Part shown: positions 15,219 through 64,000 of the stretch, piece by piece
Numbering within the stretch: the stretch's first letter is position 1
How the letters are laid out: the number at the start of each line of letters is the position of its first letter
Notes under the pieces: generated by a model
The model's database searches: none
The model's input: the letters and a program-made list of their open reading frames with translations, nothing else
Told to the model about the DNA's origin: nothing
Origin: Tribonema minus
Taxonomy: Eukaryota > Sar > Xanthophyceae > Tribonematales > Tribonemataceae
Direction of reading: 5' to 3'
NCBI GenBank assembly: GCA_017506865.1
Contig: JAFCMP010000062.1
Coordinates: 1-64,000, forward strand
DNA: 64,000 nt
Program-made: the position numbers and the translations under genes

Positions 15219-17165
15219 CTAGCCGGCCAGGCGCGTGCGCCCCTTGTTGCGGCGCCGCTGCAGTATTTTCCTGCCATTCTTGTCACCTGCGCGCATACGA
15301 TAAGAGGCGACTGTCAGGCATTGTGACAATTGCGAGGGGCCGCGGGGCATACATGTACAAGGGCCAGGAGAAAGTACCCCTAGGAAAAATGACACCAGAG
15401 GATTCTCCTGCCGTGCTTGTTGGCTTGTCAGCAATTATCAGGCACGGTAACGTTTGATGAGGGGGCGGAGCATTCGTATGCCTGGCTGCGATTCGTGCCG
15501 CCTGCGCACGCGCACGTTCAGGGGCAGCCATCAGACACTGTAACGTTGTTTAAGAGAGGGGGGGGGCATTCGTATAGCCCCCCGTGCACACGCGTCAAGC
15601 GGCGAACTCTCAGGCACGTAGCGTTTGAAGAGGGGAGCGGAGCATTCCTATACTTGGCTGCCATTCTTGTCGTGTGCACGCAATGAGAAGAGGCAAATAT
15701 CAGGCTCATGTGACATTGGGAATGGGGGGCGGAGCAATCCTGTTAAGCAGAAAGCGCCCCACGGTAAAATAACACGCGCATTCTCACCAACAGGGCGACC
15801 GTCAGGCACTGTATCGTTTAAAGGGGGGGGGGGGGCGGAGCGTTTGTATACATAGCGAGGAGAAAGCGCCACAGAGTAAGGCAAAAATCAACATGCGCAT
15901 TCTCACCAACCGTCACCAACTGGCTTCAAGCTGCAGATGCAGAGCCTTGGCTGTGCTTTGCTGGCACCACCGATGATTCTTTGGCTCACTTTACTTTCGA
16001 TAGTCTTCCGAGTCCCGCACTACTTCACACAGAAATACAGATAATGTATTGTGCTACTATTCAAGCGTCTACCCACTTTGAAGTTGAAGTGTAAGTTTAC
16101 ACCTGAGCACATGACCTCCTTTCTCAAGGTGCTGATGGCAGTGCCAACAGCATGTGTGCAGTCGACAACGCATGACTTCAACGTGTGACTTGCCGGGCAG
16201 ATGTGCCATCCAGTGTACTTCTCGAGTATATACTTTTGACGTGCGTTACTGGGGAGGGTTCAATAAGCCAGCCTCAAAGCTCGGATGTGACAACCGTTCC
16301 TGCAGGGTCACCTCATTACTTAGGGTTAGGGGTTAGGGTTAGGGTTAGGGTTACCACATTACTTAGGGTTACCACATTACTTGCCGGCTGCAACAAGTCC
16401 GTGCTTTTGCTCACACGCACACGCAGCATTACCCATGCAACCCTTTCACGCATGTACACACCAGACAGATGATAGTGTTTGAAGTGCACCTTGCTGTACA
16501 GCATGGTCCACCCGCAACGTGTGCCATGGCCATGTTCACTGGTGTTGCCAGAGCCAACAGTGTGATCATACTGCTGCAACTATGCCCCATCTACCACCAT
16601 GGCCAGAGTGTCGTTTGCGTAGGTGAGTGCGCGTCTGTTCACGAAGGTGTTGAAACTGGCGATATCGTGTCTCACTGCTTCAAATTCACCGACGCATGCC
16701 AAAGAGCCTAGCTTCAACAGCAACACTGGTTGAAGATGCCAGGACACGCCTGTACGTGTACGGCTGTGACCGTGCCAATGACAACATGGCCGTACGACTC
16801 GACCGTTCATGGAAGTATTGAAACTTCAAGATTTTTGTGAAAAACTTCAACCTCACCAACGCGTGCCAGGAAGCCCAGCTTTAATGGCAGTACTAATCAA
16901 TGATGGCGGGACACGCATTGTGTACCACTGCCACCGTACCATTTATGCCATGGCCAGAGAACTCATATGTTCCATGAAAGTAATGATGATTCAACGCTGC
17001 TGTGACTGCCTTCATCTGTTCATAGAAGTAACGATACCTCAACATTCTTGTGAATAACTTCAAACTCACCGACCCGTGCCAAAAAGCCCAACTTCCTCTT
17101 GCGCCGCAGCGTGTTGGGCTGAAACGTGCGCTTCACGGCCAAAACGGCGGGCTTCATCTCAGGTT
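15219..17165 (-). CDS. rpl34: Organelle-type ribosomal protein bL34 (two C-terminal exons)
   Basis: Two exons encode a near-complete bL34, the small basic 50S subunit protein of bacteria, plastids and mitochondria. Exon 17,165-17,070 reads ...VKRTFQPNTLRRKRKLGFLARV and ends in a GTGAGT donor. Exon 15,286-15,219, after a GCGCGCAG acceptor, reads DKNGRKILQRRRNKGRTRL and stops at TAG. The phase-1 junction forms Gly. The family signature KRTFQP-x-x-x-x-RKRKHGF-x-x-R and the basic tail are both kept. The first listed exon begins with two bases of a split codon, so at least one upstream exon should exist. A phase-compatible candidate is 18,714-18,652 (ending VGVPEDAGGAIQ). Whether the product goes to plastid or mitochondrion cannot be told without the true N-terminus. 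The 1.78-kb intron holds echoes of both exons. Confidence 0.88.
15430..15700 (-). repeat. Echo copies of the bL34 last-exon start
   Basis: On the minus strand, segments at about 15,465-15,515 and 15,650-15,690 resemble acceptor plus exon start of the bL34 terminal exon (CAGG-GACAAGAATGGCAG...). They are diverged and separated by G-rich spacers that include GGGGGCGGAGCATTCGTAT repeats (about 15,461-15,480, 15,559-15,577, 15,637-15,655, 15,823-15,848). Confidence 0.65.
16319..16361. repeat. Interstitial TTAGGG tract in the bL34 intron
   Basis: Four to five near-perfect TTAGGG units at 16,319-16,351 and further single units to about 16,375, interrupted by TTACCACATTACT. Confidence 0.9.
16660..16880 (-). 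repeat. Echo copies of the bL34 exon end plus donor
   Basis: Two minus-strand segments (about 16,712-16,672 and 16,884-16,845) repeat the exon end encoding KLGFLARVG followed by GTGA. The first reads KLGSLACVG, the second KLGFLARVG. Both lie in the intron after the real donor at 17,069. Confidence 0.8.
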
Positions 17166-17899: not shown

Positions 17900-18115
17900 C
17901 AGCAGTACACTGCACTCCAGCGTACTGCACTCCAGTGTACTGCAATCCAGTGCAATGCATCAAAGTTCTGCAGACCAGAGTACTGCAATCCAGTGTACTG
18001 TAATATAATGTACTGCACTCCAGTGTACTGCCGACAGTACACTGCACTCCAGTGTACTGTAATCTAATGTACTGCACTCCAGTGTGCTGCCGACAGTACA
18101 CTGCACTCCAGTCAC
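17900..18115. repeat. Tandem repeat, ~15-18 bp unit
   Basis: About a dozen copies of a unit close to GTACTGCACTCCAGT, with longer-order doubling of the segment CAGTGTACTGCCGACAGTAC (about 18,022-18,041 and, with one change, 18,082-18,101). Confidence 0.9.
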
Positions 18116-18269: not shown

Positions 18270-18560
18270 CTTGAAGTATGCAATGTCCACATGTCCACCT
18301 TGTATGTATTGTATAAGTTATATGAAAACGAATCAAAAGATCGTAGAGCTCTAGGTGACAAGGGATGGTTGTATATTATGTCTTGGACCGCATGGGCTGA
18401 GCACACGATCAACAGGCTTATACAATACATACAAGGTGGACATGTGGACATTGCATACTTCAAGCCTGTTGATCGTGTGCTCAGCCCATGCGGTCCAAGA
18501 CATAATATACAACCATCCCTTGTCACCTAGAGCTCTACGATCTTTTGATTCGTTTTCATA
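18270..18560. repeat. Interleaved inverted repeat A-B-A'-B'
   Basis: A is 18,270-18,317 (48 bases) and B is 18,321-18,416 (96 bases). They are followed immediately by the reverse complement of A (18,417-18,464) and then of B (18,465-18,560), essentially without mismatches. B contains the dispersed 'RALRSFD' repeat core. Flanking 18,183-18,245 and 18,573-18,640 are further diverged copies of each other (GAGCACAGAG...GAGCGCCCTCCAA). Confidence 0.93.
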
Positions 18561-18651
18561 CAACTTGAACTCTATGCTTGAGAGCACAGAGCATCAAAGG
18601 AGCGCCCTCCAAGTACTCCCCAAAACAATACTTCGAATACGCGATGCCCAC

Positions 18652-19400: not shown

Positions 19401-19440
19401 CAATCCCCTTTGCCTCATTTTGCAAGCATGATGCGGAGAA

Positions 19441-47700: not shown

Positions 47701-50700
47701 GTACAAGCACCGCCCCAGAATTCATGTACGAGTACTCATACTGTACAAATAAAGCCCCAGAATTCGTGCTTGACAACCCGTACTGTACGAGTACTTGTAC
47801 ACGAGTGCTCCTCCAAGTACGAGGCACGAGTAAACGGCTTGCCTCGTCCCAACGTTGATCTCAAGCACCGACAGCAGTGCTCACACTAGCGGCGCACCTG
47901 GCATGCCCTGCTGTCGCTCCGAGGCGAACACCTGGGAACTGGCGGCCTGCTTGGCAGCCATCGCGCTGGATGTGAGGCCCGTACGACTGCAATAAGTAGG
48001 GTTGCAGTTAGGGTTGAAGTTAGGGTTTGAAGTGATGAAATCAGTGCGCTGGACGTGAGGCCTGTACGACTGCAATAAGTAGGGTTGCAGTTAGGGTCAA
48101 AGTTAGTGATAGGGTTGCGGTGAAAGTTGAAGTCAATGATAGGGTTAGGACAGCAGCGCTGATCAGGTGTGAGCCAGGTAGGTTAGGGCTACCATCAGGG
48201 CTTAAATCTCACCCTGACCCTAGGGTCACAAGAAACAGCAGAGCTCCACGCGCTGCCACATGCGCCTAACCCCTAACCCTAACCTTAACCCTAACCCTAA
48301 CCCTAAGCATATGAGAGGTGCGGGCAGTGGGTTAGGGTTAGGGATAGCGCGCTGGGGACATGCGCCTAACCCTAACCTAACCCTAATCCTAACCCTAACC
48401 CTAACCCTAAGCATATGAGAGGTGCAGGCAGTGGTGTGATTGGCGGCCAACCCTAAGCCTGACCTTGACCCTCACCCTCAGGCACCGAACGTTAGGAGTG
48501 TGCGACTGCGATGGGTAGGGTTAGAATTACAATCAGGGTTAGTGGTAGGGTTAGGTGAAGCGCGGGGCAAGCAGCAGCGATCACCCCTGAGGAAGAATGC
48601 CCGCCAGTGCCTACAAAAGAGGGCAGAAATGCATGCGCAGAAAAGCAGCTGCAACATGAGACTACTTGATGCTGGGGCGGCGGCATTCTTCTGGCAGCCA
48701 TGGCGCTGCATGTGAAGCATGCGCTGCGCCATTAACTTCGGCAATCTCATTGTGGTAGCCTGTGGCCATGTGACACATCTCGATGGATGCCAACAAGGAA
48801 AACATCATCAGCGATGTTACTTGAAGTACTGCTAACCCTATCATCAGCGATGTTACTTGAAGTACTGCTAACCCTAGCCCTAAGCGAGTCACTCACAGGT
48901 CCACGACCTCCGCCGCCGGCTTCTAGTCCACGATGAACTATTTGGCAATTTCAACGAGGTGGCTGCGACAAATAAACAAAATTAACAATGTTGACGTTAC
49001 TTGAAGTACTGCTAACCTAGTCCTAAGCGAGTCACTCACAGGTCCACGGCCTCCGCCGCCGGCTTCCAGTCCACGCTGAACTCCTTGGCAATTTCAACCA
49101 GGTAGCTCTGCACCAGAAAGTTGGAGGGCGGCTCCACGCTCAGCTGCTCCGCCACCTTGGGGTTCACGCAGCCGTACTGCGGTGACAGTTACAGCCATTG
49201 CAAAGAAATGCTGATGAGCGTGATGAGTGTTGCCGCAATGCAGTGATGGCCCTATATCAGTTGCTCCGCCACCTTGGGGTTCATGCAGCCGCACTGCGGT
49301 CACAGTTACAGCAGGAGGAAAAATGCTGCTGAGCGTTGCATGATACGCAACGGCGATGGGTCCTCGCAGCCATACTGCAGTAACAGTTGCAGCAGCTACA
49401 AAACAAGACTTGTTGAGCATTGCTGCAATGCAATGGTGACGGTCAACCTTCTGGAGACAGAACTGTTACGTTTGCCTTGATGTTCACACTGCGTTGACAG
49501 TGATTAGGACACCTGAAGTATGGAAATCAGTGGCAACGCTCGATCGTGGGGGATCACGCAGTCATTGAGCAGTTACAGCAGCAGGTATAGCAGCAAGCGT
49601 AGCTGTTCAGCGGGGCATGATTCGCGGTGGTGATGCTCAACGTTGGGGTGCACGCAGCCGTACTGCAGTCACAGGGAGACAAGCACGCCTGCTATATGAG
49701 CCATGCTATACGAGCAATTGCACAGAAAAACCATATTGATGATGCTCAATTGTCTGAGACGGAATTGCGGTGTACCTACCGCCTAGGAGTTCGCGCAGCC
49801 GTACTGCAGCGCCTCCACTCTTGTATGTGGCAGTGCTCATATATGCAGCAGCGCTCATCATCATCATCACATGCAGCAGCGCTCACCTCGTTGCGCATGG
49901 CGCGCTGCACCGTCTCCCGCCCATACATTTCAATCTGCAGCAGTGCTCATATTACGCAGCAGCGCTGCCTTCATTGCGCATGGCGCGCTGCAGCGTTTTT
50001 CGCCCAAACCTTTTGTAATACGCAGCAGTGCTCATATATGCAGCAGCGTTCATCATTTCTGAATATGCAGCAGTGCTCATATTATGTAGCAGCGCTCATC
50101 ACATGCAGCAGCGCTCACCTCATTGCGCATGGCGCGCTGCATCGTCTCCCGCCCGTACTTCTTGGCAAACTGGTCCTTCACCTGAGCCACAAGCGGAGCG
50201 CGAGGAAGTGATAACAGCGCTGAGCATGTTGCTGCCAGCGCTCAATCCTAACCCACTAACCCTAGTCGTGATGCTAATCCTAACCCTAACCCTAAACCCT
50301 AGTGCTAACCCAAACCCAGGCCAAAAAGATCGCCGTGGACAGGTTGGACGTGGCCAATCAGAGCGCTGGACCAAGGTTGATGACGATGAAGCTCGACTCA
50401 AGAAAGCAAGTCAAAGATCGTTGTCATTAGCTTAACTGTTGTCATGAGCTACATAAAACAATACTGAGACAAGGTTTATATGAAGTAGAAGTGAGATAGA
50501 ATTATATGTAGGAGGTCTGGCCCCAATTCTAACCCAACCATGCCTTCCAACAAGTACCTGCCAGTGCACAAGTTCAAGGTGTCGTAACTTCAAAGTGGGA
50601 CATATCAATGTGTGAAACATGGCAGCCCGCAACAATGCAAACTCGCCTTGGATAACTCTTCTGCCTCTGTCCTGTCGGCCGCCCAGATGATGGTTGAAAT

Positions 50701-53700
50701 GGCCTCTAGCAGGTCTGTTGGCAGCGTGGACTGGCTCTCGATGTAGCGCATCCGCTGCACCAGCAGGTCGCACTGCACGCAACGAGGGCGAAAGAAGGGG
50801 TTAGAAAGAGGAATATTCTGGTACATAGGGTTAGGGTTAGGGTTAGGATTAGGGTTACCCTAACCCTAACCCTAACCCTAGTCCTAACCCTAACCCTAAT
50901 CCTAATCCTAACCCTAACCCTAACCCTAACCCGAAGGGTTTCCGCCCCTGCACCAGCAGATCGCACTGCACGCAACGAGGGCCGTTGAGAAGATTAGACA
51001 TAACAGAAATGAAGGCGAAAGAAGGGGTTCATGCGAGGGGCATTCTGGTACGTGGAGGTGCACCTTCTCAATGTAGCCATGCGCTGCACCAGCAGGTCGC
51101 ACTGCGATATGACAGCAACGGAGAACTCAGCACAGGAAAAACTTGGGGGGAAATTGCAAAAGTACAGGGGCACCTTCTCCCATCCACCAACACTAGCTTG
51201 TTTCGGAATAGCTGGCTCTCTATGCACTGCAAGCCACAGGAGGAACATATCTCACACTGTAGCGTATGCGCTGCACCAGCAGGTCGCACCGCATGCAGCT
51301 AGGGCAATCGTGGGTTTGTAAAAAGGACACTCTTATACGTGGAGGTGCACCTTCTCAATGAACCACATGAGCTGCACCACACACCAATCACACTGTGTGC
51401 AACAAACAACGGCGACAGGGGGGCTCAGTGGAAACTGGAGGGAAGCTTTAGTACTTTTACATGAAGGGACGCCACTGCACATATGCCAACACTAACAGCC
51501 TATGTCTCAGGTACGCATTTTCTCAGTTTCATACACTAGCCAGGGGCGGCATGCACGACACGCAACCGCAGCACAGATGGCTGAGCGATGCTCAGCACAT
51601 GGACATAACAAGGGTTAGGGTTAGGGCAATGGGATGTGGGATGCCAGCAGCGCTTTGCCGACTGCGCGAAAGGCAGGCATGCAGGAGCTGCCTACTATGC
51701 AGGAGCTGCCTACTTAAAATCTCATGAAGATGTTTCTCTTTTTCTGCAGAACTGCCTGCCCTGTCAGCTACGTACGCACCTACATTCCTGCCCACGAAAC
51801 CGCCTGCAGCACCAGGGTCTGATGTGCGCTGCATCGCGGCTACTGACATGCATATCTACGTGATTACCTACCTCTGCCTCTACATACCTACCCATGCACG
51901 CACCTGCAGCTCGAGGAGTACCCTATAGTTGCCTACTTACTGCAGACTGGCATGCCATGTCATCTACATATGACCTTGCTCACCTGTCTGTCTGTTTGCC
52001 TTCATTCCTACATGTCTAACTGCGTAAGCACCTTATCATATACCTACTAGTACCACCTTCCACCGCCTCTACATACCTACCCATATACGCACCTGCAGCT
52101 CGAGGATCTCGTACGCGCTGCATATGGCGTCGTTGCGACCGCTGCCATACATACCTACCTGATGACCTACTTCTCTCCTCTACATACCTACCCATATACG
52201 CACCTGCAGCTCGAGGATCTCGTAGGCGCCGCGCGTGGCGTCGTCGCGACCGCTGACATACATACGTATGTGATTACCTCTACATACCTACCCGAATACA
52301 CACCTGCAGCTCGAGGATCTCGTAGGCGCCGCGCGTGGCGTCGTCGCGGATGATCTGCTCCACGCGGATGCGGGCTGCGCATATACATACATACATACAT
52401 ACATACACAACGAAGCAGCAGTGCTCAGATGATGACATCGCGTGGCGTCGTCGCGGATGATCTGATTCACGCGGATGGGGGCTGCGCACATACATGCATA
52501 CATATACACAACACACAAAAGCAGTGCTCAGCGGATGATCTGCTCCACGCGGATGCGGGCTGTGCACATACATACATGCATGCGTGACAGAGCAGCAGCG
52601 GTCAGGCGATGACACAGATGAGGGGAGAGCATCTGCAGCCTGCTGCCGACCAGGGTCAGCCTCCTAACCCTAACATCTACTTTAACCCTACCCCTCACCC
52701 TAACCCTAAGGATGACGCAGCAGCAGTGCTCAGGTAATGACGCAGCAGCAGCGCTCAGGTAATCACGCAGCAGCAGTGCTCAGGCGATGACAAAGCCTGC
52801 GTAAGCTGCGTCGGCACACACACCTGGCTAGAGGCACACAGTGCAGCACCGCCAGATGCGCCCACAACAGAGCAGCAGCGCTCAGCACACGCATCTGTAC
52901 CTACATGCATGATGACAGAGCAGCTGGGTTTCGGCGAGGGACCCGCTGTGGTCTGGCACCGCAGCATCCAACCCTAACCCTAACCCTAACCCTAACCCTA
53001 AACCTCTGCCACGATGCGCTGCAACTGAACGTTTGAGCTGCGCAGTCTGCAAGAGCTGCTGCCGCGCTACCGTTCAGAACAAAAGGCGAAGAGTGTAACA
53101 GCTCTTGGCCACCTTCTGGCCATCACTGACCGCGGTGTGTAACGCTGACTTCAGCCCACATGATCGAGCAGCATGACCCGCCACATGGCTTGAATTGCGG
53201 TACTGAACTCAGCACTGCAAGTCTTTGAATTCTGATAGCGTGGAATGACTGGACAAATATCGGTAGCTCGCTCCCGTGTACAAGGGGACCGCGGAGGCAG
53301 CTTGCTGACCATGAACCACCTTGGTCTCCATGTCTGTATGCTGTCAGTATGAAAAGGACCCTGCTCTTTTTAAAGGCACATTCAACACATGCGGATAAAG
53401 TTGCAGATATAAACGTGTGCGTGTGTGCAGCACATGAAAATAGTGACGCACCAACCTTTGTCCTCCTTGAAGCCGCACCTTTGTCCGCATCGCCTCCGCG
53501 AAGAGTACAGACTACTCACTCGCTATATGCACATGGACTGAGCTTACATGCGCATCTGCAACTGTGCAGCGTATCAGAAGAAAATCACTTTCCCTACCTA
53601 CCTACTTCAAGTTATGCTATACCATTTGTTGAAGATAGTGCCTCTCCTACCTTTGTCCTCCTTGCCCTCGCCGAGCAGCCGCGCAACCTCCCGCTTGCAC

Positions 53701-55407
53701 ATCTCAACGCTGTTGGTTTTCTTGTTGATGTGCATCTGCATACAAGCAAGTTCAACATTGTGTTCAACGTTGACATGCCAATAAGGTTGGAGCGATGTTG
53801 CGCAACAGGCACACGAGAGCAGCCGCAAAACAGCAAGTTCAACGCACAACAGCAAGTTCAACATCATGTTCAACATCACGGCTTCATACTGCTCGGATTT
53901 CTCACTGATCTGTATCTGTACACAAACACACGCGCAGTGCCTGTGCGCACGTGAGCGGCCGCGACAGCGCTTAACAGCAACCTCAACATTATGTTCAACA
54001 TCACTTTTCCTGCCTTGCACAGCTCCACACTGCTCGGACTTCTCATTGACCTGCATCTGCAGGCAAACGGACGCGAGGCGCCTGTGCACTTCAACATCAT
54101 GTCATGAAACTTCCTGCCCTTGCACCACACCGGTCGGGCTTCTTGATCATTTGCATATGCGTGCCAATACATGTGAAGCGGCCATGTGCACATGATCAAC
54201 CAGCATGGTCAGCATCGCTCGTGCTTAGCAGTGTTCGCTGGCGGTCAGTTCAAGTTATGATGGCGACAGGGCTGGAGTGATAGAGCGCTGAGGCAGAATA
54301 TCGCAGATAAAAATTAGCATGCCGCGATCTCAAAGGGTAGGGTTGGAGATAAGGGTTGGAAGTTAGGGTTAGGGTAGGGTAACAGGCGATTGATGCTGAG
54401 CACTGATGGACGGGCGGTTACGCAATGGATATGCGCGCGCCCCCAGCTTGTTGCCATTCGATGTAGAATCACCACAAGGGTGAGAGGTACGCATGCAGTG
54501 GACCAGCTGCAGCAGCAGCGACCAGCAGCTGCGCGGGATCGAACAGGCAAATGGCAAACTGTACAGCTCCCGCGTCTCTGTACTGGCTTGCCTCCGATTG
54601 ACTTCGCGCAGCTGAATCAATAGGTAAATGGCACATCGTACAGCTCATGCGCCTTTGAACTGGTTTGCCTCCAATTAATTTCGTGCAGCTGAACCAGATG
54701 GGTAAATGGCAAACTGTACAGCTCCTACGCCTCTGTACTGGTTTGACTCCGATTTAGACTCCGATTTGGACTGCCTCTGCGCATGCACCATCCGCAGTCG
54801 GCAGTGCGCGGACGCTACAATTGAATTTACAACAGGCGATCGTCGCTTCCTACCTGAAATTTACAGTATAGTGGTGTTGTGATGGTGCGTATACAAAAGA
54901 GTAAAGACGGCATTTACTGCAGCCACAGCGGCAGCCATCTGAGTGTGCACGCAGGACGGTGATTGCAGAGCTCACAATCCTGGAAAATCTGCCAGGTACG
55001 AGTTGCGATGCGCCTACACGCATGTCAGCAATTGCGAGCCGAGCCTGACAGGGCTTGCACCCAAGAGACTCGATGCTGACAAGCTGCAGCTGCCTGGGAG
55101 CATGCATCCTGAGTTCCAGAGCTTTGTATATATATGATTGCGTGAGGCCCTTTCAACATTTAAAGAGGAGATGGTTGCAGTCTTGCAGTTGGGTTTACAA
55201 GCAACACGGTTTGCTTTCAAGTCAACACACTAAATTACGTAGTGCTTGACAAACAGGGAAAGAGCACAAAGAGTCCGGGACTAGTTGCACTGACGATTCG
55301 CCAGAGGCATTGAGTCTTACCTGGAGCCGCTGCATGCTCATTTTCAGGTACGCCTTCGTCTTCGGGCCATCAAAGCCTATGCCCACGGCCTTCAGTATGC
55401 TCGTCAT
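41724..55407 (-). CDS. IST1: IST1 homologue, ESCRT-III-associated regulator of VPS4 (complete, 12 exons)
   Basis: Exons (high to low): 55,407-55,321; 53,735-53,651; 52,374-52,304; 50,772-50,647; 50,181-50,119; 49,176-49,040; 47,986-47,898; 45,727-45,513; 44,858-44,768; 43,505-43,454; 42,582-42,425; 41,788-41,724. They total 1,239 bases, 412 residues, and all phases agree. Residues 1-190 form the IST1 domain: GFDGPKTKAYLKMSMQRLQ, KREVARLLGEGKEDKARIRV, EQIIRDDATRGAYEILELQC, DLLEAISTIIWAADRTEAEE, FAKKYGRETMQRAMRNE, VNPKVAEQLSVEPPS and LVEIAKEFSVDW. A Gln/Tyr-rich stretch (about 229-270), a Pro-rich repeat (DIPSAPTNVP twice) and a C-terminal MIT-interacting motif (FIDLQARFANLKRGR) follow, as in animal and plant IST1. 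The protein should bind CHMP1/VPS4 at endosomes, the division site and repaired membranes. Exon 4 uses a GC donor (AAG|GCGAGT). Coding is only 9% of the gene; introns hold echoes of most exons. Confidence 0.95.
44600..44750 (-). repeat. Two echoes of IST1 exon 9 end plus donor
   Basis: The exon 9 end (minus: ATGGCACCGCCCGCAAAAGAGGCCTAC...|GTGAGTGAGTG) recurs at about 44,690-44,740 and 44,605-44,650 with TTTTGYGRGCGGTGCCATGGGCTC on the plus strand and a matching CTCACTCACTCACC flank. Confidence 0.92.
44881..45275. repeat. Two-copy tandem repeat, 199-bp period
   Basis: 44,881-45,079 and 45,080-45,275 are about 93-95% alike by eye, carrying GTGTATGGCACGAATGCAAC and CACGCGTACGTGTATGCAGG. Within each unit the halves are themselves related (ATGAGTAAG-GCTGAAGAGGGCC versus ATGAATAAGTGCCGAAGAGGCC). 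Confidence 0.95.
45338..45438. repeat. Two-copy tandem repeat, 52-bp period
   Basis: AGTGATTGCATATAGTTCTG and the next ~28 bases are perfectly repeated at 45,338 and 45,390. Confidence 0.97.
46752..47278. repeat. Large inverted repeat (foldback), ~250-bp arms
   Basis: Arm 46,752-46,999 is matched in reverse complement by 47,017-47,278. Shared blocks include GGGGGCACACCTTGC, AAGCTCAGCTGGCGG, GAGGCACTGCGCA and the central CACCGCAGAGTTG/CAACTCTGCGGTG. Arms are clearly diverged. CCCTAA units flank the right arm (47,280-47,303). It sits in IST1 intron 7. Confidence 0.88.
47990..48130 (-). repeat. Echo of IST1 exon 7 start
   Basis: GCGCTGGA-GTGAGGCC-GTACGACTGCAATAAGTAGGG, covering exon start, acceptor and adjacent intron (47,962-48,001), recurs at 48,045-48,083. 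GTTGCAGTTAGGGT text follows both. Confidence 0.95.
48240..48430. repeat. Interstitial CCCTAA tracts in a duplicated segment
   Basis: CATGCGCCTAACCC...CCCTAAGCATATGAGAGGTGC occurs at 48,258-48,322 and again at 48,359-48,427, each with five to seven telomere-like units. Confidence 0.95.
48800..48965 (-). repeat. Decayed echo of IST1 exon 6 end
   Basis: GTCACTCACAGGTCCACGACC and on to TTGGCAATTTCAAC at 48,890-48,955 copies the real exon 6 end plus donor (49,031-49,097). In frame it now has stops. The preceding TGTTACTTGAAGTACTGCTAACC occurs three times (about 48,815, 48,850, 48,997). Confidence 0.95.
49205..49345 (-). repeat. Echo of IST1 exon 6 start
   Basis: GCTCCGCCACCTTGGGGTTCATGCAGCCGCACTGCGGT at about 49,263-49,300 copies acceptor plus exon start at 49,147-49,184; further weak copies (GCAGCCRTACTGCAGT) lie near 49,368, 49,662 and 49,796. 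Confidence 0.92.
49800..50118 (-). repeat. Echoes of IST1 exon 5 end plus donor
   Basis: GCGCTCACCTCGTTGCGCAT then GGCGCGCTGCACCGTCTCCC (49,876-49,922) and GCCTTCATTGCGCATGGCGC (49,966-49,985) copy the real exon end at 50,111-50,160. Multiple CAGCAGCGCTCAT motifs separate them. Confidence 0.93.
50826..50932. repeat. Head-to-head telomere-like junction (TTAGGG)n-(CCCTAA)n
   Basis: Four TTAGGG-type units (50,827-50,857) turn at GGGTTACCCTAACCC into about twelve CCCTAA-type units running to 50,932. Located in IST1 intron 3. Confidence 0.96.
50940..51380 (-). repeat. Echoes of IST1 exon 4 start
   Basis: GCACCAGCAGRTCGCACTG (real at 50,757-50,774) recurs near 50,950, 51,086 and 51,273, with weaker GAGCTGCACCACACACCAATCACACTG at 51,368-51,394. 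Flanking GAAAGAAGGGGTT and ATTCTGGTAC are repeated too (50,789-50,825; 51,017-51,052). Confidence 0.93.
51880..52575 (-). repeat. About six echoes of IST1 exon 3
   Basis: Copies of the exon 3 end plus donor (GCACCTGCAGCTCGAGGATC and flanking TACATACCTACCCATA) lie at about 51,897-51,920, 52,088-52,140 and 52,199-52,252. Copies of its start plus acceptor (CGGATGATCTG...GCGGATGCGGGCTG, then TACATACATACA) lie at 52,432-52,490 and 52,530-52,565. The real exon at 52,304-52,374 is the only one with both halves intact. Confidence 0.95.
52650..53010. repeat. CCCTAA tracts and GCAGCAG-GCTCAGG minisatellite
   Basis: CCCTAA units at 52,661-52,710 and 52,970-53,002. Between them ATGACGCAGCAGCAGTGCTC-type 27-base units repeat three to four times (52,711-52,790). 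Confidence 0.9.
53440..54175 (-). repeat. Echoes of IST1 exon 2
   Basis: Acceptor plus exon start (real: CAGATGCACATCAACAAGAA on the minus strand) recurs in altered form near 53,900-53,925 (QIQISEKSEQ), 54,025-54,060 (LQMQVNEKSEQ) and 54,130-54,165. A copy of the exon end plus donor (CCTTTGTCCTCCTTG) lies near 53,455-53,470. Confidence 0.85.
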
Positions 55408-55734: not shown

Positions 55735-58700
55735 ATGGCGCGCAAGGTGACACATCGGGCCCTGATGTGTCGGTGCCACACAATTGCCAGAGTTGAAGCT
55801 TGATGCAAACCCATGCAGCACGCGAGCACGCAATGACATGATGCTGTCGGCATGGCCGTCTCCTTCGTGCTGTCTGGCATCTGCAAATTCACGCCTGCTG
55901 TGATGCCAGTCACGGTGTTGTGACTAACCTAGTCACACTTCGGTGCATGCACCACCATCGCAGATCTCGGCTGGGCTGGTGGTGGGAGCCTGCGCATTGC
56001 ATGGAGCAGCGGGATTCACAGTGGCGCCGCAAATCGCTCACACACGATCCGCAAGGTGCGCAGCGTGGGTTACGACTTGCAGTTGGGTGCCGGTATGGTC
56101 GAAAAGCGCGACTGACTCGTGCTGTATGGATCATGGCGATCTTGAGAAAATTCAACTCGGCTCATGTGCTGCTGATGCAACCTTCATATTCTCTTTACAG
56201 ACTCACATTCCAGGATGCAGATAGAACGCAAAACTGCCTTAGGGTGTGTTGAAGTCAGAGTTACAGAGCGCTGCAGGCAGCAGTCCTCATAGTGCGTTCA
56301 TGTGTACGTGCATGTGTTAGTGCTCGCTTTTTTGGCAAGCTTGTGGCGGTGCCTATCTGAGCTTAAAACACCTCAGCTATGCTCTCACAGCATCACCGGC
56401 GCACAGCCTGCAGAACATCATCAACAGCTGCCTGCCAGCATGTTGCGACAGCGCTGCTGCAACTTGCTTGGTCATGCGTCAGTGCTGCAGAAGCTGCGAG
56501 AGGATTCTTGTTTATTTCTGGTCACAGTTCCGTTAACTATATCCAGACTTGGTGACAATTTTGAGTTGCAGATGCAACATAAGTTGAAGTGTGATTTTGC
56601 CCCTGCGATTGATGCTTGCCTGGCAATCGACTCCATGAAAATTGGTCGTACAGATGCCAAAAGGAATCGCCAAGGGAATTGCATTCTGGCATAGCCTCGA
56701 TTATGATACGTAACTGACAGGTTCCAGCGGCAGTTACACTTGAACTTCAAGGTTGCAGTTGTACACTGTGAGTAGGCGCATTTGGCAGCTCAGAGCCCCA
56801 AGGCTGCGCCACAGTTCTTGCAATGTATCTCAATGACCGTGCGCATGTGCTGTATGGGTCGCTGTACGCGCATGCGATTTGGTGCTGCGGAAGCATATCT
56901 GATGCCGCATGGTAGCCGCTTCATTGCTGCACCTTGAGAGTACTGCCAGCAGTTGACGTCAAACAAAACTTGCCCTTGTTCGGAGCCCTCGGCAACGGAG
57001 GTGAAGGGGAAGCTGCCAGCTGCAGCCACAGCCGCGTGGACCGTAACCAAACTGGCGGCCACTGCGTTACGCCGGCGAACCTGAGACTGTTCCCACTCTT
57101 CCCAGTCAACTTCAAGTGCCTTGACGGCCGCCGCTCGGCCGCGTCGGCAAAAACTTGGTGTGAACTTCAACTACGCTGGAAAAGTGTGAACTTCAACTTG
57201 AATGTCTCCATGTTTCGCTTTCAGGTTGACTTCAAGTGCCTTGACGCCGTCGGCGCCGCAAAAAGCTTGGTGTGAACGTCAACTACAGTAAAAACTTCAA
57301 CTCACTGGAAACAGTGTGAAACATGTCCCCATATTCCGCTCTTTCAGGTCTGGCGCGCTGCGCATGGGCGTCGGGAACAGCTTTGGGCGCATATTCCGCA
57401 TCAGCACGTGGGGGGAGTCGCACGGGGGAGGCGTGGGGGTGAACTTGGATGGCTGCCCGCCAAAAATACCCATCACTAGGGACGAAATTCAGATTGGTGA
57501 GTGCTTGCTGACACCAGGGATGAAATACGGATTGGTGCGTGCTTGCTGAACTCAATGCTTGCCAACCAAAATAACTTATCACAAGGGACAAATACAGAGA
57601 TCGGTGCGTGCTTGCTGACTGTTAATGCTTTCCCACCAAAAATACGTATCACAAGGGCCAAAATACAGATTGGTGAGTGCTTGCTGAACATCAATTGCTG
57701 CCCGCTAACAACACCCATCACTGGGGACGAAATTCAGATTGGAGTGTGCTTGTCAAGCATCGATGGTTGCTGAGCATCGCAAAACTCATCTACAACCTTA
57801 TCCATTACTGAATGAATTCTGTGGCTGTGAATGCCATGTCGCAAATCGTGATGCGAGTGTCAGCCCATGCCAGTACACGCCAAGCTTGCGGTTCTATTTA
57901 CTCACACTTTCCTCAAGCAGTGTGCTACATACTAGCTTTACGCGGCTGTAGGCGCTGTTCAGTAATCCTGGCAAAACTGCTGCGCTGCAGCCTTGCTCAA
58001 CTTGTGTCGTGTACATGGCCGCTGCAGCCAAGCATCGCTCAACCGGCGCAAGCCCAACTGTTACGTGCCGCCGTGTACCGCTTGACCTGACATTGCTTGA
58101 AGACATGCTTTTGTCTCAGCTCACGCTGCTGTAGGCACTGTTTAGTAACCGTAGCACACTCAGTGCAGCCCCACTTACGACCAATGCAAGCCCAACTGTT
58201 GTGTGCCGCCGTGCACAGCTTGACCTGACACTACTGGAACACAAGCTTATTGTCTCAGCTCATGCTGCTGTAGGCGCTGTTCAGCAATGCTTTCACAATT
58301 GCACTGCAGCCGTGCTCCACCTGTGATGTACACACATGGTTGCTGTTGCTGTTGTAAGGAGCCTGGCGCTGCTTGAAGAAGAGCTTTTTAACAGTTCACG
58401 CTGGTGTAGGCGTTTGTGAAGTACCTGTTGTGTACCACTGCTCACCTGTAAGTTAGGCTGTAACGTATGCGCATGGTCGCTGCTGCTCCGCAGAGTTCGA
58501 CCGGCGCAACCCCAACTGCTTTTCACTGTCGCGCTGACATTCCTTAAAGACAAGCTTCTTGTCTCAACTCATACTGCAGTAGGCACTGTCCAGCAATCGT
58601 AGCAATGCCGCTGCACTGCAGCCTTGCTCACCCTGTCTCGCTGCTGCCGTGCAGAGCTCGACCCGTGCAAGCCCAACTGTTTTCCTGACATGACTTGAAG

Positions 58701-61700
58701 ACAAGCTCATTGTCTCACCTCATGCTGCTGTAGGCATTGTGTAGTAATCGCAGCACACTCAGTGCAGCCCCTACTCACCTGCAATGTACGCGCATGGCCG
58801 CTGCTGTGACGCAGAGCTCGACCGGCGCAAGCCCGGGCAGAGCCGCCTCACAACGCCGCGCAATGAAGACGACGTTGTGGAGATACTGTCGGGAGTGTCG
58901 CCGGAGGGGCTGACGCTGGGCACGCCTATCGCCATGCTGGTGAGTCAACTTCAACTTTAACTGCAGAGTTCAGAAGTATGTGGTCGATGGCGCAGTTTGC
59001 CTAGGAGGATGCTACCAGCGTGATATGACGTGACTGTCGGGAGTGTCACCGGAGGGGCTGACGCTGGGCACGCCTATCGCTATGCTGGTGAGTCAACTTC
59101 AACTCCACTGTTCTTCAATTGTTTGCTTAGGAGGGCGCAACATATGACGATACTGTTGGGAGTGTCTCCGGAAGGGGCTGATGCTGGGCACGCCCATCAC
59201 CATGCTGTGAGTCAACTTCAGCTTCAAAGGCACAGTTTGGAAGTATGTCATCAATGGCACACTTCGCAATAGATGTCATATGGCGTGACTGTCGGGAGTG
59301 TCACCAGAGGGGCTAACGCTGCGCACGCCTATCGCCACGCTGGCGAGTCAACTTCAATAACTGCACAGGTTTTGTCACCTTTGACGATCATTTCCGGGGC
59401 ACGCGTGCAAGTCGTCAAACATACGGTTAGAGTACTTGGAAGTGTGCACTCCAACACTACGTAGTTGAGCATCAGCGCTTGCGTCTCGTTTGGTTGAGCA
59501 TCAGCACCGCTCGCTTCCCCTGTGCGTGCTGTCGGGTGCGCATCAAGGACCACTGCAGCAATGACTACGATACTAACGCCGTGGCCTACCAGCTCCTGCA
59601 TATACATACATACCTCAAACAAGCTGAGCATCAGCACTTGCTTCTCCTGTGTGCCGTCAGGTGCGCAACAAAGACCACCGCAGCAACGACTATGACACCA
59701 ACGCCGTGGCCTACCGGCCTTCGCATGCGGATGCGACGTACGACGCTAAATACGGCATCAGGTGAGATGAATGCATGAATTGAAATGAATCAGTGAATGA
59801 ATTCACTTGTGAGTACGAACGAGCTGTTGCACGCGGATGAGACGTACGACGCCAAGTACGGCATCAGGTGAGATGAATGAAATGGTATGAATCAGTGAAT
59901 GAACGAATGATGCATGCACTCACACGCAGAGGCGACGAACGACGCCAAATACAGCATCAGGTGATATGAATGAATGAAATGACATGAACCAAATAACGAA
60001 TCAATGATTGCATTCATGAAAATGAACGGGCGCTCGCATGCGGATGCGACGTACGACGCCAAATACAGCATCAGGTGATATGAATGAATGAAAGTTGACA
60101 ACTCATTGAGTTAGGGTTAGGTTTTAAGTCAGGGGTCAGGGGTAGGGTTGGGAGCTGAGGGCGCTAACCTAACCCTGACCTGCGCCAACCGGCCTATTGG
60201 CGCCACTGTGTGAAGTGTGTGAGGCTGCGGCCTTTACTTGCAAGTGACATGCATACTTGCCGTGCCCACTGCTGGAAATCTGCAGGTAACCCAGCCGCCT
60301 CTGAGCACCCTGACCTGCGCCAATCGGCCTATTGGCGCTACTGTGCGAAGTGTGTGAGGCTGCGTGCGGCCTTTGCGTGCGCGCCACATGCATCTTGCCC
60401 CTCCCGCTGCTGGCAATACTTGCGGTAACCGCCTTTGAGCGCCTATGCATCTCAATTTCAATCCTCACACAACCGTACTGCCTAGCCCTAACCCTAACCT
60501 TATCCCTGACAGAAAGTATGACTCACTCACTACCCCTTTATTCTGTTGGCTCCCCCCTTCGCTTCGCTCAGGGTTGTGGCCGCGGCTGCCGCAGCAGCGT
60601 TCGTCAGTCCCTGTGCACTGACAAATTCCTCTTTCTTCCTCCCCCCCCCCCCCATTGCTCAGGGGGGTGGCCGGGGGTGGCTACAGCAGCGCTCGACAGT
60701 CGCTGAGCACTGACATATCCCCCTACCTCTTTCTTTCTGCGTCCCCCCCCCCCCCCCCCCCCGCATTGCTCAGGGCTGTGGCCGGGATGGCTGCAGAAGT
60801 GCTCGGCAGTCCTTGAGCACTGACCCCCCCCCCCCCCCCCTTTCTTTCTTTCTGCCCCCCCCCCCCCCCCCCCCTGCATTGCTCTGTGGCGCTCGGCAGT
60901 CCCTCGGAGCCGACGCAGTCCCTCAGCGCTGACTTATCCCCTCTTCCCGTCTTTCTGTCCCGCCCATCTTGGCATCGCCTCAGGGCGGTGGCCGGGGGCG
61001 GCCGCAGCAGCGCTCGTGAGACCATCGGGCGCGTCGCGGCGGCGGCGGTGGCGCGCAAGATACTGGACTTGTACTGCGGCTGCGAGGTATGTATGCATTT
61101 CTATTGCATCATACACTTCTATGCATATAATACCTACTTACCCTCAGAGTTGGCGCGTCGCGGCGGCTGCAGCTGCGCGCAAGATACTGGATCTGTACTG
61201 CGGCTGCGAGGTATGTATATATATATATACATATATGCATAGATACGTACCTACCCTTAGTGTGGGCGCGTGGCGGCGGCCGCGGTGGTACGCAAGTTGC
61301 TGGATCTGTGCTGTGGCTGCGAGGTATGTATATATATTGCATAGGTACTTACCTGCCCTGAGAGTGGGCACGTCGCGGCGGCCGCGGTGTTGCGCAAGAT
61401 ACTGGATCTGTACTGCGGCTGCGGTGTATGTATATATGCATATAATGCTTACTTACCCTTAAGGTACCAGATTGGGTTCACAGTCAGCAGTGGCGGGGTA
61501 TGTGCGGAGGCTGCAAGGTATGTACGGAGGCTGCTAGGCACGTATGTACCTACTGCATGAAGACATGCTTCAGCCCTAATCCTTCCCTTACTGCCCTCGA
61601 TGCATGTTTAGGGCAAGTATGCTCTGGCAAGATTCAATTCTTTGGCACTTAAGCGATACTACTGGATCTGCACTGCGGCAGCGAGATCTGGATGCATGCA

Positions 61701-64000
61701 TAGGATGCCTGCTAACGCCATTCTCTCGGCTGTTCGTGCAGTCACCTGTGCTTGACCATCATGCAGATTCCTGTGTGTTGTGGCACTGTGCGTTGTGGGT
61801 TGCAGGGGTCTTGCCCTAGAGTCAGGGTTAGCTGAATCCATGAACCCAACCCCTACCCACTGCTCCAGGTCTCAGGCTGCATGAAGACCCTAGTCGATCC
61901 CTAACCCTAACTCCATCTAGGACGTGTCGGCAGTGGCCAAGCTTCAACCAAGTCCTCACCCTAGCCTTGACACTTGCCCGGCCCAACCCCCTCTCTTTCC
62001 TGGCTTGGGCTACGCGAACGCGGTGCAAGACGTCGATGGAGAGGATGTGGATCTAGGTTTTTGACCCTCGCCTTAGTTTGACCACTTGCCTGGAGCCTGA
62101 CCTCCTCGCTTTCAGGTCCTGGGTTACGTAAAGGCGGTGCAAGACATTGTGGCGGAGGATGCGAGCCCCAACGCAGACCTGGCCATAGCCCGCGACCCTG
62201 TCCCTAATCTCCATCCCCCTTACTCAAGCTGTTACCCAAACTCGTTCTTCTTCGTCACACGGCGTAAGCCTTGCTCGCGTTCCCCATTGCATTTTCCTCG
62301 ATCTCCATACACGAAGGCCGCGCAAGACGTCGTTGCAGAGGACGTTGACCCCAACCCAGACCTGACCCCTACCCCGCAACCGTAGCCCTCATCTCAACCC
62401 CCCAACCCTAACCCCACACCACTTTTCCAGATCCTGGGGTACGCGAAGGCGGTGCAGGACGCCGTTGCGGAGGATCTGGACCTAACCTAATCCCAAAACC
62501 TATCCCAACCCAGACGTGACCCCTTGCCCGCAACCGTAGCAGCCTTGAAGTCAACTTCCTGACCGTAACCCTAACCCTACACTACTTGTTCAGGTCCTGG
62601 GGTACGTGAAGGCGGTGCAAGACGTGGTTGCGGAGGATGTGGACCCCAACACCTTTACGAGGGACCAGGTGGAGGACAGCCTGGTGCGGTGTCCCCAGCC
62701 GGATGCCTCCAACGCGATGGTGAGCACTGACTTGCTGAGCATCATCGATGAGCACTCATAGGCAGTCATTGCTGAGCGCTGCTTCATATCGGGCGGAGGG
62801 GGGGGGGTATGTAGCCCAGCCGGACGCCTCCGACGCCATGGTGAGCGCTGACTTGCTGAGCATCATCGATGAGCACTCGCCGGCAAAAATTATTGGTGAG
62901 CGCTGCTTCATACCATTTGGTGGTGCGGTGTCCCCAAACATTGTGGAATCCGCCGTATCACAGTACTTTCATGATGTGACTGTATGTATACCTACATAGA
63001 AGTACCTTTTTTCCAGCTATGGTGTTACCGCATGAGCGCCCTCTGTGACGGCCGCATGCTGATCATCACCACCAGGTTTAGTGCATCAACACTGTCTGCT
63101 GTCAAACTGTCGCAGCATGCGCTGAGCAATGTGCTGTCAGTGGAAGCTGACATGGTGTCCTCTAGCTGTACGCGTATTTTGACCGCGCAGACTCACACAC
63201 ACGTGAATTGACCATATGCGCACTGATTCTCACCGCATCGACACTGCCTGCTGTGAAACTGTCGCAACATTTACTGAGCATTTCGCTATTAGTGACAGCT
63301 GACCAGGTCATGGTGTCCTCTAGCTGTATGCATGTTTTGCCCACACACACTCAGACACACATATGACTTTACCGTACGCGCACTGACTCCCACCACTACC
63401 AGAGCGCATGCTCTGACCACACACTCTCTGTAACTGCCGCATGCTGATCATCACCACCACCATCAGATTGAGCGCATCGACGCCATCCGCAAGACGGGCA
63501 ACTCCATCGGCGGCGTGGTGGAGTGCGTCGCGCGCAATGTGCCGGTCAGTCAACGTCAATATATAAAGTTGAAGTTGAAGTTCATGTGCCAAGTTTGTCA
63601 CTTAATCTCTCTTTACTTGGTCTCGCTTCAGGCACGCGCAACGTGCCGGTGAGTCAACTTCAATTTATGAAATTGATTATGAAATTGAAGTTGAAGCTCG
63701 TATGCCAAGTTTGTCGCTCGAGCTCTCCTTACTTGGTCTCGCTTGGCGCACGCAAAGACTGAGATGATGAACATCGCGCTTCCTGCAGCAGATGTCGATG
63801 TTTTGGTTCAAAATCACGCTACCTATCACCAATGATATAATTGCACGTATATATGTGGTCTGTGCTGCTGCTGCACTTGTGTGTCTCGTCATCAGAGTTC
63901 GTATTCATGAGTCATTCTGTCGGAAGACTATTCACATCGCACAAGCTATGCAATTTTCAGATGCATCTGCTGATGAAAAACGGATGAAAAACGGTCGTTG
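55735..64000 (+). CDS. Chorismate synthase, plastid-targeted (3' end outside window)
   Basis: Exons 55,735-55,746, 55,964-56,055, 57,348-57,496, 58,815-58,939, 59,661-59,761, 60,984-61,086, 62,594-62,719 and 63,467-63,544 join in phase to 262 codons. Another 130-150 residues should lie to the right. The enzyme converts 5-enolpyruvylshikimate-3-phosphate to chorismate, last step of the shikimate pathway, with reduced flavin. Diagnostic blocks: [20 protein letters not shown] (signature 1), [80 protein letters not shown] (signature 2), [11 protein letters not shown] and [16 protein letters not shown]. The N-terminus, [18 protein letters not shown] then AAGFTVAPQ, fits a bipartite signal and transit peptide cleaved before Phe. 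The 12-base first exon is inferred from phase and the signal-peptide fit; GTG-initiated read-in at 55,943 is the alternative. Confidence 0.93.
57100..57275 (+). repeat. Duplicated intron segment in chorismate synthase intron 2
   Basis: TTGACTTCAAGTGCCTTGACG-CCG...GCCGC...AAAA-CTTGGTGTGAACKTCAACTAC occurs at 57,107-57,175 and 57,223-57,286 (peptide VDFKCLD in one frame). It has donor-like GTGTGAAC ends, but no fit to the enzyme. Confidence 0.88.
57490..57755 (+). repeat. Four echoes of chorismate synthase exon 3 end plus donor
   Basis: GACGAAATTCAGATTGGTGAGTGCTTGCTGA (real end at 57,496) recurs as related text at 57,515-57,547, 57,585-57,620, 57,652-57,690 and 57,724-57,755, with CCCGCCAAAAATACCCATCAC-like text upstream of several copies. 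Confidence 0.96.
57930..58805 (+). repeat. Echoes of chorismate synthase exon 4 acceptor region
   Basis: A ~170-base motif repeats four to five times up to the real acceptor: CTGCTGTAGGC-CTGTTCAGTAAT, GCTGCAGCC..GCTCAC, TGTRCRYGCATGGCCGCTGC, and a CGACCGGCGCAAGCCCAACTG block (about 58,035, 58,175, 58,497, 58,650). Only the copy at 58,815 continues CTCGACCGGCGCAAGCCCGG as coding exon. Confidence 0.92.
59025..59355 (+). repeat. Three echoes of chorismate synthase exon 4 end plus donor
   Basis: The real end (GGAGTGTCGCCGGAGGGGCT ... CATGCTG|GTGAGTCAACTTCAA, 58,891-58,956) recurs at 59,038-59,105, 59,157-59,221 and 59,290-59,357. Copy 1 is almost identical and open. Confidence 0.97.
59470..60090 (+). 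repeat. Echoes of chorismate synthase exon 5
   Basis: A near-full upstream copy lies at 59,530-59,592 ([19 protein letters not shown]), with the same TGAGCATCAGC flank as the real exon. Downstream, the exon end plus donor (GCGGATGCGACGTACGACGC then AAATAC-GCATCAGGTGA-ATGAATG) recurs at 59,833-59,880, 59,930-59,972 and 60,036-60,090. Confidence 0.97.
60560..60900 (+). repeat. Three echoes of chorismate synthase exon 6 start with poly-C acceptors
   Basis: Each unit carries a C run (up to 20), ATTGCTCAG, then GG-TGTGGCCG-GG-TGGC-GCAG-AGYGCTCG, resembling the real acceptor and exon start at 60,981-61,016. Units begin near 60,567, 60,641, 60,745 and, truncated, 60,856. Confidence 0.93.
61130..61440 (+). 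repeat. Three echoes of chorismate synthase exon 6 end plus donor
   Basis: GCGCAAGATACTGGAYYTGT followed by ACTGCGGCTGCGAGGTATGTAT (real 61,051-61,092) recurs at 61,177-61,218, 61,289-61,331 and 61,392-61,434. Preceding GCGYGTCGCGGCGGC is also copied. Confidence 0.97.
61990..62500 (+). repeat. Four echoes of chorismate synthase exon 7 start
   Basis: Acceptor plus exon start (real: GGTACGTGAAGGCGGTGCAA at 62,602-62,621) recurs at about 62,005-62,055, 62,114-62,165, 62,309-62,350 and 62,429-62,487. The copy at 62,432 stays open ([16 protein letters not shown]) and has a good acceptor. Confidence 0.97.
62805..62910 (+). repeat. Echo of chorismate synthase exon 7 end plus donor
   Basis: CAGCCGGACGCCTCCGACGCCATGGTGAGCGCTGACTTGCTGAGCATCATCGATGAGCACTC at 62,816-62,877 copies 62,697-62,758 with five or so changes. 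A following ATTGSTGAGCGCTGCTTCATA is also shared. Confidence 0.97.
63050..63290 (+). repeat. Two echoes of chorismate synthase exon 8 acceptor region
   Basis: CTGATCATCACCACCA...AGTGCATCAACACTGTCTGC (63,059-63,103) and CACTGATTCTCACCGCATCG (63,221-63,240) are diverged copies of the real region 63,442-63,495. They share AACTGTCGCARCAT and TGAGCA downstream. Confidence 0.8.
63545..64000 (+). other. Chorismate synthase intron running off the window
   Basis: Starts GTCAGTCAACGTCAA and contains one echo of the exon 8 end (GCACGCGCAACGTGCCGGTG at 63,633-63,652). No further exon was found before the edge. Confidence 0.7.

What the first reader, a model, noticed from the sequence alone, without database searches (positions are those of the whole stretch)
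15219..63660. Exon echoes: nearly every exon is surrounded by decaying partial copies of its own splice junction
In bL34, the GNAT gene, the surface protein, IST1 and chorismate synthase, introns contain one to six copies of the adjacent exon end plus donor, or acceptor plus exon start. The copies decay with varying degree, while the single copy that keeps frame, phase and both junctions encodes the conserved protein. This holds for both strands and about 30 exons. Intron gain by tandem duplication of AGGT-containing exon segments is a known model. What stands out here is the density, the repeated hits on the same junction and the presence in every spliced gene. It suggests a lineage-wide mutational process that keeps duplicating DNA across splice sites, inflating introns and supplying ready-made alternative exons.
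Basis: partly seen in the sequence, partly recalled or inferred. Interest (0 to 1): 0.92.

Follow-up and report, generated by a model that had tools for sequence, protein, structure and literature searches.

The report
Introns growing by copying exon edges

Summary
The window is nuclear DNA of Tribonema minus. In 40 introns with fairly firm borders (22 on this contig, 18 in kinesin genes on 9 other contigs) a decayed copy of the adjoining exon edge lies inside the intron for 26/40 donors and 22/40 acceptors; 31/40 introns have one or both; controls 5/400, 3/400, 1/40. Copies are local and direct, and nearly all testable ones head-to-tail (35/44); none of three searched pieces is a dispersed element. 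Copied exon pieces decay like neutral DNA. Introns hold more local copies than DNA around 8 tRNA genes (0.52 against 0.12). Is the junction itself favoured? Raw coverage is equal at junctions and deep inside, but simulated uniform duplication predicts roughly half as much at junctions. With exons masked, 29 of 58 repeat families reach a junction; 12-15 are expected. The unselected kinesins alone are marginal (8/20). Intron gain, introners and functional alternative exons are not supported. The cause of the junction excess is open.

The parts
57364..57496 (+). chorismate synthase exon 1
   Evidence: deposited protein P0001 aligned to DNA
57440..57752 (+). donor-echo array of chorismate synthase exon 1 (parent plus copies)
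58014..58834 (+). acceptor-echo copies and parent, exon 2 (58815-58939)
58882..59368 (+). donor-echo array of exon 2, 3 copies after the parent
59495..59718 (+). acceptor echo and parent, exon 3 (59661-59761)
59713..60100 (+). donor-echo array of exon 3, 3 copies
60557..61023 (+). acceptor-echo copies and parent, exon 4 (60984-61086)
61027..61444 (+). donor-echo array of exon 4 (copies about 100-125 bp apart)
62006..62650 (+). acceptor-echo copies and parent, exon 5 (62594-62719)
62694..62912 (+). donor echo of exon 5
63531..63753 (+). donor echo of exon 6 (63467-63544)
44768..55407 (-). IST1 gene, part used: exons 55407-55321, 53735-53651, 52374-52304, 50772-50647, 50181-50119, 49176-49040, 47986-47898, 45727-45513, 44858-44768 (the deposited model runs on to about 42.4 kb)
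   Evidence: P0121; the first six exons also by P0122 of Chrysoparadoxa
49887..49934 (-). echo of IST1 exon 5 end, annotated as an exon in deposited P0121 (IEMYGRETVQRAMRNE)
49273..49293 (-). echo of IST1 exon 6 start, annotated as an exon in deposited P0121 (CGCMNPK)
51866..52614 (-). IST1 exon 3 with acceptor-echo and donor-echo copies
34015..39890 (+). surface-protein gene, 3' part; exons 34015-34133, 35104-35267, 36018-36223, 37574-37718, 38761-38939, 39855-39890
   Evidence: P0134 covers 36038 onward; earlier borders by reading the sequence, guided by P0135
36108..37091 (+). donor-echo array of surface-protein exon 3
35193..35679 (+). donor-echo array of surface-protein exon 2
15222..17163 (-). 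bL34 exons 17163-17070 and 15286-15222 with an intron holding 2 donor and 1 acceptor echoes
   Evidence: identity as bL34 by eye

Best explanation
Introns of many genes in Tribonema minus keep growing by local direct, mostly head-to-tail duplication, typically of 100-150 bp. A duplication that overlaps one exon edge is tolerated, because the outermost copy keeps the exon and its splice site while the extra copy falls inside the intron. There it drifts as neutral DNA and may be copied again. Exon edges are hit about 2-2.4 times more often than uniform placement would give. Shown: the copies, their local and direct nature, the neutral decay of the exon-derived part, the enrichment in introns over the non-genic samples looked at, and the edge excess over a uniform model. 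Inferred: that selection removes duplications inside exons (windows more than 40 nt deep inside exons have few copies), that introns grew this way, that the source is repair of staggered breaks or paired nicks in transcribed gene bodies by fill-in and blunt joining, and that exon edges break more often.
For: Echo frequencies against controls. Unit length: median 117, interquartile 99-135, in 77 tandem-like pairs (some loci overlap, so a few pairs count twice). The intron flank is duplicated too in 35/44 nearest copies (z above 4). Codon-position mismatch 0.095/0.084/0.185, ratio 2.06 (1.71-2.47), 26/83 copies gapped: what a neutral copy of a constrained parent should show. GT kept 41/53, AG kept 34/41, near the neutral expectation of 0.83. 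Introns 0.52 against 0.12 around 8 tRNA genes; 0.00 between the divergent IST1 and chorismate synthase genes and 0.05 after the latter's stop. No dispersed relatives of three pieces searched, apart from C-rich low complexity. Exon-masked families 29/58 at junctions against 0.17-0.22 in uniform simulations matched in length.
Against: Raw coverage is the same next to junctions and deep inside (0.52 against 0.46, p 0.32); the excess appears only against a model. Kinesins alone: 8/20, P 0.02-0.11; the window genes were picked because echoes had been noticed. Of the 44 nearest copies tested, 5 show no duplicated intron flank and 4 only a weak one. Exon-part identity does not track intron-part identity, which simple tandem duplication would predict. 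Of 14 pairs at 93% identity or more (13 distinct), only 3 are complete head-to-tail copies; the other 11 are shorter than their spacing. The non-genic sample is small, and some stretches without known genes also have many copies (72-79 kb up to 0.64). The break-repair step rests on three junctions that were not shown to lie in introns.
Confidence: 0.64

Rival explanations
1. Duplications fall uniformly in introns; selection clears exons, and exon echoes stand out only because the parent exon is conserved and so stays recognisable longer.
For: Purely intronic windows next to the junction have copies as often as interior ones (0.50 and 0.53 against 0.46), and the excess at exon-containing windows lies mostly in identity. 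The kinesin families alone do not clearly exclude it (8/20).
Against: In simulations of this model windows starting 0-20 nt from the junction are covered 0.4-0.6 times as often as interior ones; observed ratio 1.12, 0.87-1.41. With exons masked, 29/58 families still reach a junction against 12-15 expected.
Confidence: 0.25
2. Introns were short (about 100-200 bp) until recently, so random units had to cross a junction.
For: One of three growth simulations (150 bp, fast) gives a junction fraction of 0.54; the two others give 0.29 and 0.26.
Against: Growth models started from 100-250 bp leave 0.72-0.99 of interior windows covered, against 0.46 observed; from 400 bp 0.58. Young families (best pair at least 88% identical) still sit at junctions in 13/19.
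Confidence: 0.12
3. Large deletions keep wiping intron centres while DNA near exons is protected.
For: Simulated 500 and 700 bp deletions raise the junction fraction to 0.35 (300 bp: 0.17).
Against: It predicts older copies near junctions; they are if anything younger (median best identity 86.3 against 81.1, p 0.05).
Confidence: 0.12
4. The echoes are functional alternative exons kept by selection.
For: Deposited IST1 model P0121 uses two of them; most keep GT or AG; some exon parts are far better preserved than the intron flank.
Against: Codon-position ratio near 2, 26/83 gapped; no excess of partner splice sites at breakpoints: 13/53 (0.25) against 0.35 control and 1/41 (0.02) against 0.05; the echo-free IST1 scores better.
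Confidence: 0.05
5. They are introners or other transposable elements.
For: Many copies per intron.
Against: Cross-gene controls find almost no copies (5/400, 3/400); 58815-60984 has no match elsewhere in the 158 Mb genome except C-rich low complexity (that search skips very common words).
Confidence: 0.01

Closest known systems
[quoted passage not shown] passages of PMC3443670 and PMC4974935 seen)
   Same: Head-to-tail duplication of a gene segment that carries splice signals.
   Different: There a duplicated exon segment makes a new intron; here the unit carries exon edge plus intron, the original splice site stays in use, and the copy ends up inside an existing intron.
Potato RdRp duplication crossing an intron-exon boundary (PMC4974935, passages seen)
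   Same: One duplication with the 3' part of an intron and the 5' part of the next exon.
   Different: A single event that produced a new intron; here 31 of 40 introns are affected, many repeatedly, with copies that look unused and decay.
Tandem exon duplication
   Same: Local direct copies of coding sequence within a gene.
   Different: Here the copies are fragments (20-125 nt of exon, median 44.5), with no whole exon among those listed and no sign of coding selection.
Introners (PMC9860276, one passage seen)
   Same: A process shaping introns across many genes.
   Different: Introners are dispersed transposable elements that create introns; these copies are local.
Tandem duplications from paired nicks or patch-mediated break repair in plants (recalled, no paper read)
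   Same: Short direct duplications with little microhomology.
   Different: As far as I recall not known to favour introns or exon edges; only three junctions were read here.
Short direct repeats at intron borders (PMC11782384, abstract seen)
   Same: Direct repeats near splice sites.
   Different: Those are 4-30 bp repeats; here units are about 100-150 bp, often in arrays.

Membership tests
Intron gain by tandem duplication | duplicated exonic segment itself supplies both splice sites of a new intron | tested here: not met
   in 35/44 nearest copies the intron flank is duplicated too; deposited P0001 and P0134 use the original donors and acceptors, not the echoes
Intron gain by tandem duplication | intron absent at that position in relatives | tested here: inconclusive
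   Heterococcus protein P0123 has insertions at several of the same IST1 positions, but they do not begin like donors and no DNA of relatives was available
Tandem exon duplication | whole exon with both splice sites copied | tested here: not met
   the exon-overlapping copies listed are all partial
Tandem exon duplication | copies under coding selection | tested here: not met
   neutral codon-position ratio, 26/83 gapped
Tandem exon duplication | copies spliced into mRNA | not testable with these tools
   no RNA reads; one deposited model, IST1, includes two
Introner | near-identical copies in many genes | tested here: not met
   cross-gene controls 5/400 and 3/400
Minisatellite | head-to-tail arrays of one unit | tested here: met
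   arrays of parent plus 1-5 copies at many junctions; but arrays differ in sequence from gene to gene
Paired-nick or staggered-break duplication | blunt or nearly blunt copy junctions | tested here: inconclusive
   0, 1 and 0 bp in the 3 complete copies among 14 young pairs

The most novel reading that the evidence does not exclude
A mutational process tied to transcribed, spliced genes duplicates DNA preferentially across exon-intron borders in this lineage, so that introns build themselves out of the edges of their own exons; intron length then evolves by self-copying rather than by transposable elements, and the spliceosome lives with a dense field of authentic but decaying decoy splice sites.
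Probability: 0.35. Interest if true: 0.87.

Novelty: new variant of a known kind. Interest (0 to 1): 0.72.

Why it matters
What makes introns long is usually answered with transposable elements (general knowledge, not from a call). Here is a genome where long introns seem to show their building steps, with an internal clock (the conserved exon parent) for many copies. It offers a natural test of how the spliceosome picks the right site among copies that often still carry intact GT or AG, and of whether breakage or repair differs at exon edges. It also warns that gene models of such genomes can swallow echo pieces, as the deposited IST1 model appears to.

Tried and rejected
A coverage test first suggested no junction preference; I gave up that reading after simulation showed that uniform duplication predicts 0.4-0.6 of the interior coverage at junctions. 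Growth from short introns and large-deletion edge protection were simulated and fit worse overall. Echoes as conserved exons: against codon positions. Introners or transposons. Ready-made cassette exons: no excess of partner sites. Heterococcus IST1 insertions as a measure of ancestral intron length: dropped, because they do not begin like donors. Rfam found nothing at its thresholds. Rows dropped: 10 of 28 neighbouring kinesin exon pairs, because the aligner did not return exactly two exons; 1 of 8 IST1 introns, because it holds an annotated exon of unsure status; the two annotated echo exons of IST1 were left out of the model; kinesin exons of ambiguous frame were left out; copies with less than 25 nt between them and the junction were left out; bL34 and gene X were added only and are outside the 40. 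A few kinesin borders are doubtful (for example L041_1867 and L044_1236, with weak donors). Metaplot one search used rougher kinesin models and is superseded. Borders outside the deposited proteins come from my own aligner or from reading, none from transcripts.

Full report
What the window is. It lies on contig C62 (362,507 bp) of a 158 Mb, 554-contig genome. The hand-spliced chorismate synthase matches a deposited Tribonema minus protein whose longest contig has the same length (P0001), so the window is nuclear DNA of this xanthophyte alga. The species name rests on that match.

Gene models. I wrote a small protein-to-DNA spliced aligner and mapped deposited T. minus proteins: chorismate synthase P0001 (11 exons, introns 721-1507 bp), IST1 P0121 and the surface protein P0134. 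For other contigs I used kinesin exons found by Pfam PF00225 (132 matches), took stretches around 18 kinesin loci and kept introns between two adjacent exon hits where the aligner returned exactly two exons: 18 of 28 pairs, on 9 contigs. With 10 + 7 + 5 introns from C62 this makes 40 introns, median length 999.5 bp. A few kinesin borders are doubtful.

Queries of up to 60 nt of exon plus 20 nt of intron find a copy inside the adjacent intron for 26/40 donors and 22/40 acceptors; 31/40 introns have one or both; 62 donor and 51 acceptor copies in all. Against introns of other genes the same queries hit 5/400 and 3/400, and the donor query hit the reverse complement of its own intron in 1/40. Per gene, either type: chorismate synthase 10/10, IST1 4/7, surface protein 5/5, kinesins 12/18. 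The kinesins were not chosen for echoes. Exon-part identity falls only weakly with distance (rho -0.22, p 0.03, 101 copies).

What the copies are. They are direct and local: self-matches within 2 kb in the 16 kb chorismate synthase stretch are 63 direct and 0 inverted. Tandem-like pairs have unit lengths of median 117 (99-135, n = 77, a few counted twice because loci overlap). In the nearest copies 20-125 nt of exon are included (median 44.5). In 35/44 the intron flank is clearly duplicated as well, in 4 weakly, in 5 not. Exon-part identity did not track intron-part identity among 101 copies (means 0.82 and 0.70, unrelated control 0.59), and of 14 pairs at 93% identity or more (13 distinct) only 3 are complete head-to-tail copies. 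I cannot fully explain this; templated insertion, gene conversion from the exon, or fast turnover of intron sequence may play a part. Genome-wide DNA searches find no dispersed relatives of the stretch 58815-60984 or of two copy-free intron stretches, apart from C-rich low complexity.

Decay. Among 83 copies with known frame, mismatches to the parent exon are 0.095, 0.084 and 0.185 at codon positions 1-3; ratio 2.06 (95% 1.71-2.47); 26/83 are gapped. By my reckoning a neutral copy of a constrained parent with free synonymous sites should give a ratio of about 1.7-2; a coding copy should give much more. GT is kept in 41/53 and AG in 34/41 copies, close to the neutral expectation of 0.83, so there is no sign that decoys are kept or silenced. 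No excess of YAG upstream of donor echoes (13/53 against 0.35 control) or of strong GT after acceptor echoes (1/41 against 0.05) is seen.

Where the duplications lie. With one method, 0.517 of 80-nt windows in the 40 introns have a local direct copy (inverted 0.020) and 38/40 introns exceed 0.1. Around 8 tRNA genes (of 60 matches) it is 0.123 (inverted 0.074; single loci 0.00-0.31); in 1-8 kb with the retroelement 0.061; in 8-14.5 kb 0.040; between IST1 and chorismate synthase 0.000; after the chorismate synthase stop 0.050; at 40.2-42.0 kb 0.163. A landscape over 82 kb shows steps at the ends of the mapped genes, but also high stretches without gene models (22-23 kb 0.80, 76-77 kb 0.64). Loci around long-exon kinesins are mostly low (0.00-0.11 in L010-L015, L018, L020, L024 and L025) and several others high (0.41-0.57 in L017, L023, L026, L027, L030, L033); the remaining loci lie between 0.00 and 0.38, among them loci of many-intron genes (L035, L037, L038 at 0.00-0.05), so the split is not clean.

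Junction preference. Windows purely inside the intron next to the junction have copies as often as deep ones (0.52 against 0.46, 37 introns, p 0.32; ratio 1.12, 0.87-1.41). That looked like no preference. But a duplication leaves two covered places, and next to a junction only the parent counts: simulated uniform duplication with selection gives 0.16-0.20 for interior 0.38 at the lowest rate tried, and 0.4-0.6 of the interior value over four rates. A threefold to fourfold junction bias comes near in most bins, although it overpredicts copies deep in exons (0.33-0.36 against 0.10) and underpredicts well-preserved exon parts. To remove the advantage of conserved exons I masked exons and clustered intron-only self-matches: 58 families, 29 within 12 nt of a junction. 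Expected under uniform placement: 12.0 with present lengths (no draw of 200,000 reached 29) or 14.8 with collapsed lengths (P 4e-5). Length-matched uniform simulations give 0.17-0.22 against 0.40-0.59 over nine settings. Split: C62 21/38, kinesins 8/20; the kinesins alone give P 0.02-0.11 depending on the assumed rate, and the window genes are ascertained, so the preference needs a genome-wide test. Young families sit at junctions in 13/19, and junction families are not older than interior ones (86.3 against 81.1% best identity, p 0.05), which speaks against protection from large deletions and against ancient short introns.

Consequences. Intron length rises with echo number (rho 0.51, p 7e-4), although longer introns also offer more room. 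The deposited IST1 model includes two echo pieces as exons (49934-49887 and 49293-49273); Chrysoparadoxa IST1 lacks them, and Pfam Ist1 matches the echo-free version in one stretch with 187.0 bits against 171.3 in two stretches. Whether RNA supports them is unknown to me.

Mechanism. Best supported: repeated local direct duplication, mostly head-to-tail, tolerated where the extra copy falls into an intron. I think the source is fill-in and blunt joining of staggered breaks or paired nicks in transcribed genes, because the three young complete copies join with 0-1 bp of shared sequence (not shown to lie in introns) and the non-genic samples are poor in copies; this step is inference, at about 0.25. 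Why exon edges are favoured is open.

Literature. Passages of PMC3443670 and PMC4974935 describe tandem duplication as a route to new introns, the latter with one duplication across an intron-exon border in potato. In the brown alga Ectocarpus tandem repeats are said to be relatively evenly spread over the genome (PMC12477816, passage). In the rows listed by ten searches I saw no title or abstract start that describes this pattern in Tribonema or elsewhere; the T. minus genome announcement (recalled) is not held. Plant paired-nick and patch-repair work is recalled, not read.

Noticed in passing
1911-6269 (+): Long open frame (1452 aa) with a weak reverse transcriptase match (RVT_1, 27.9 bits, below Pfam's cut-off of 29.6); the region has almost no local duplications.
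   Followed up: partly
18315-18566, with relatives at 10373-10461, 28509-28663, 32289-32431, 40728-40807: A palindromic dispersed element, probably a small non-autonomous repeat.
   Followed up: no
16320-16353, 19958-19985, 26918-26995, 48265-48410, 50826-50932, 52970-53005: Interstitial TTAGGG telomere-like arrays, several of them inside IST1 introns; the one at 50826-50932 changes orientation in its middle.
   Followed up: no
C334:714136-714324 and C112:516888-517037: RuBisCO large-subunit matches, each with a stop inside, in contigs of about 2 Mb; perhaps plastid DNA moved to the nucleus.
   Followed up: no
introns throughout, e.g. 35280-35300, 63560-63580: The motif ACTTCAAGTTGAAGT and parts of it recur in introns (seen by eye, not counted).
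   Followed up: no
L010-L039: Kinesin loci with long exons mostly have few local duplications, several others many; the split is not clean.
   Followed up: partly
44878-45270: Two 198-bp tandem copies, about 95-96% identical, inside the IST1 intron before the last exon used.
   Followed up: no
P0123 (Heterococcus IST1): The predicted protein has insertions at several of the intron positions of T. minus; they do not begin like donors, so they may be wrongly predicted exons.
   Followed up: partly
echo pairs: Exon-part identity does not track intron-part identity across 101 copies; gene conversion from the exon or non-tandem templated insertion could explain some cases.
   Followed up: partly
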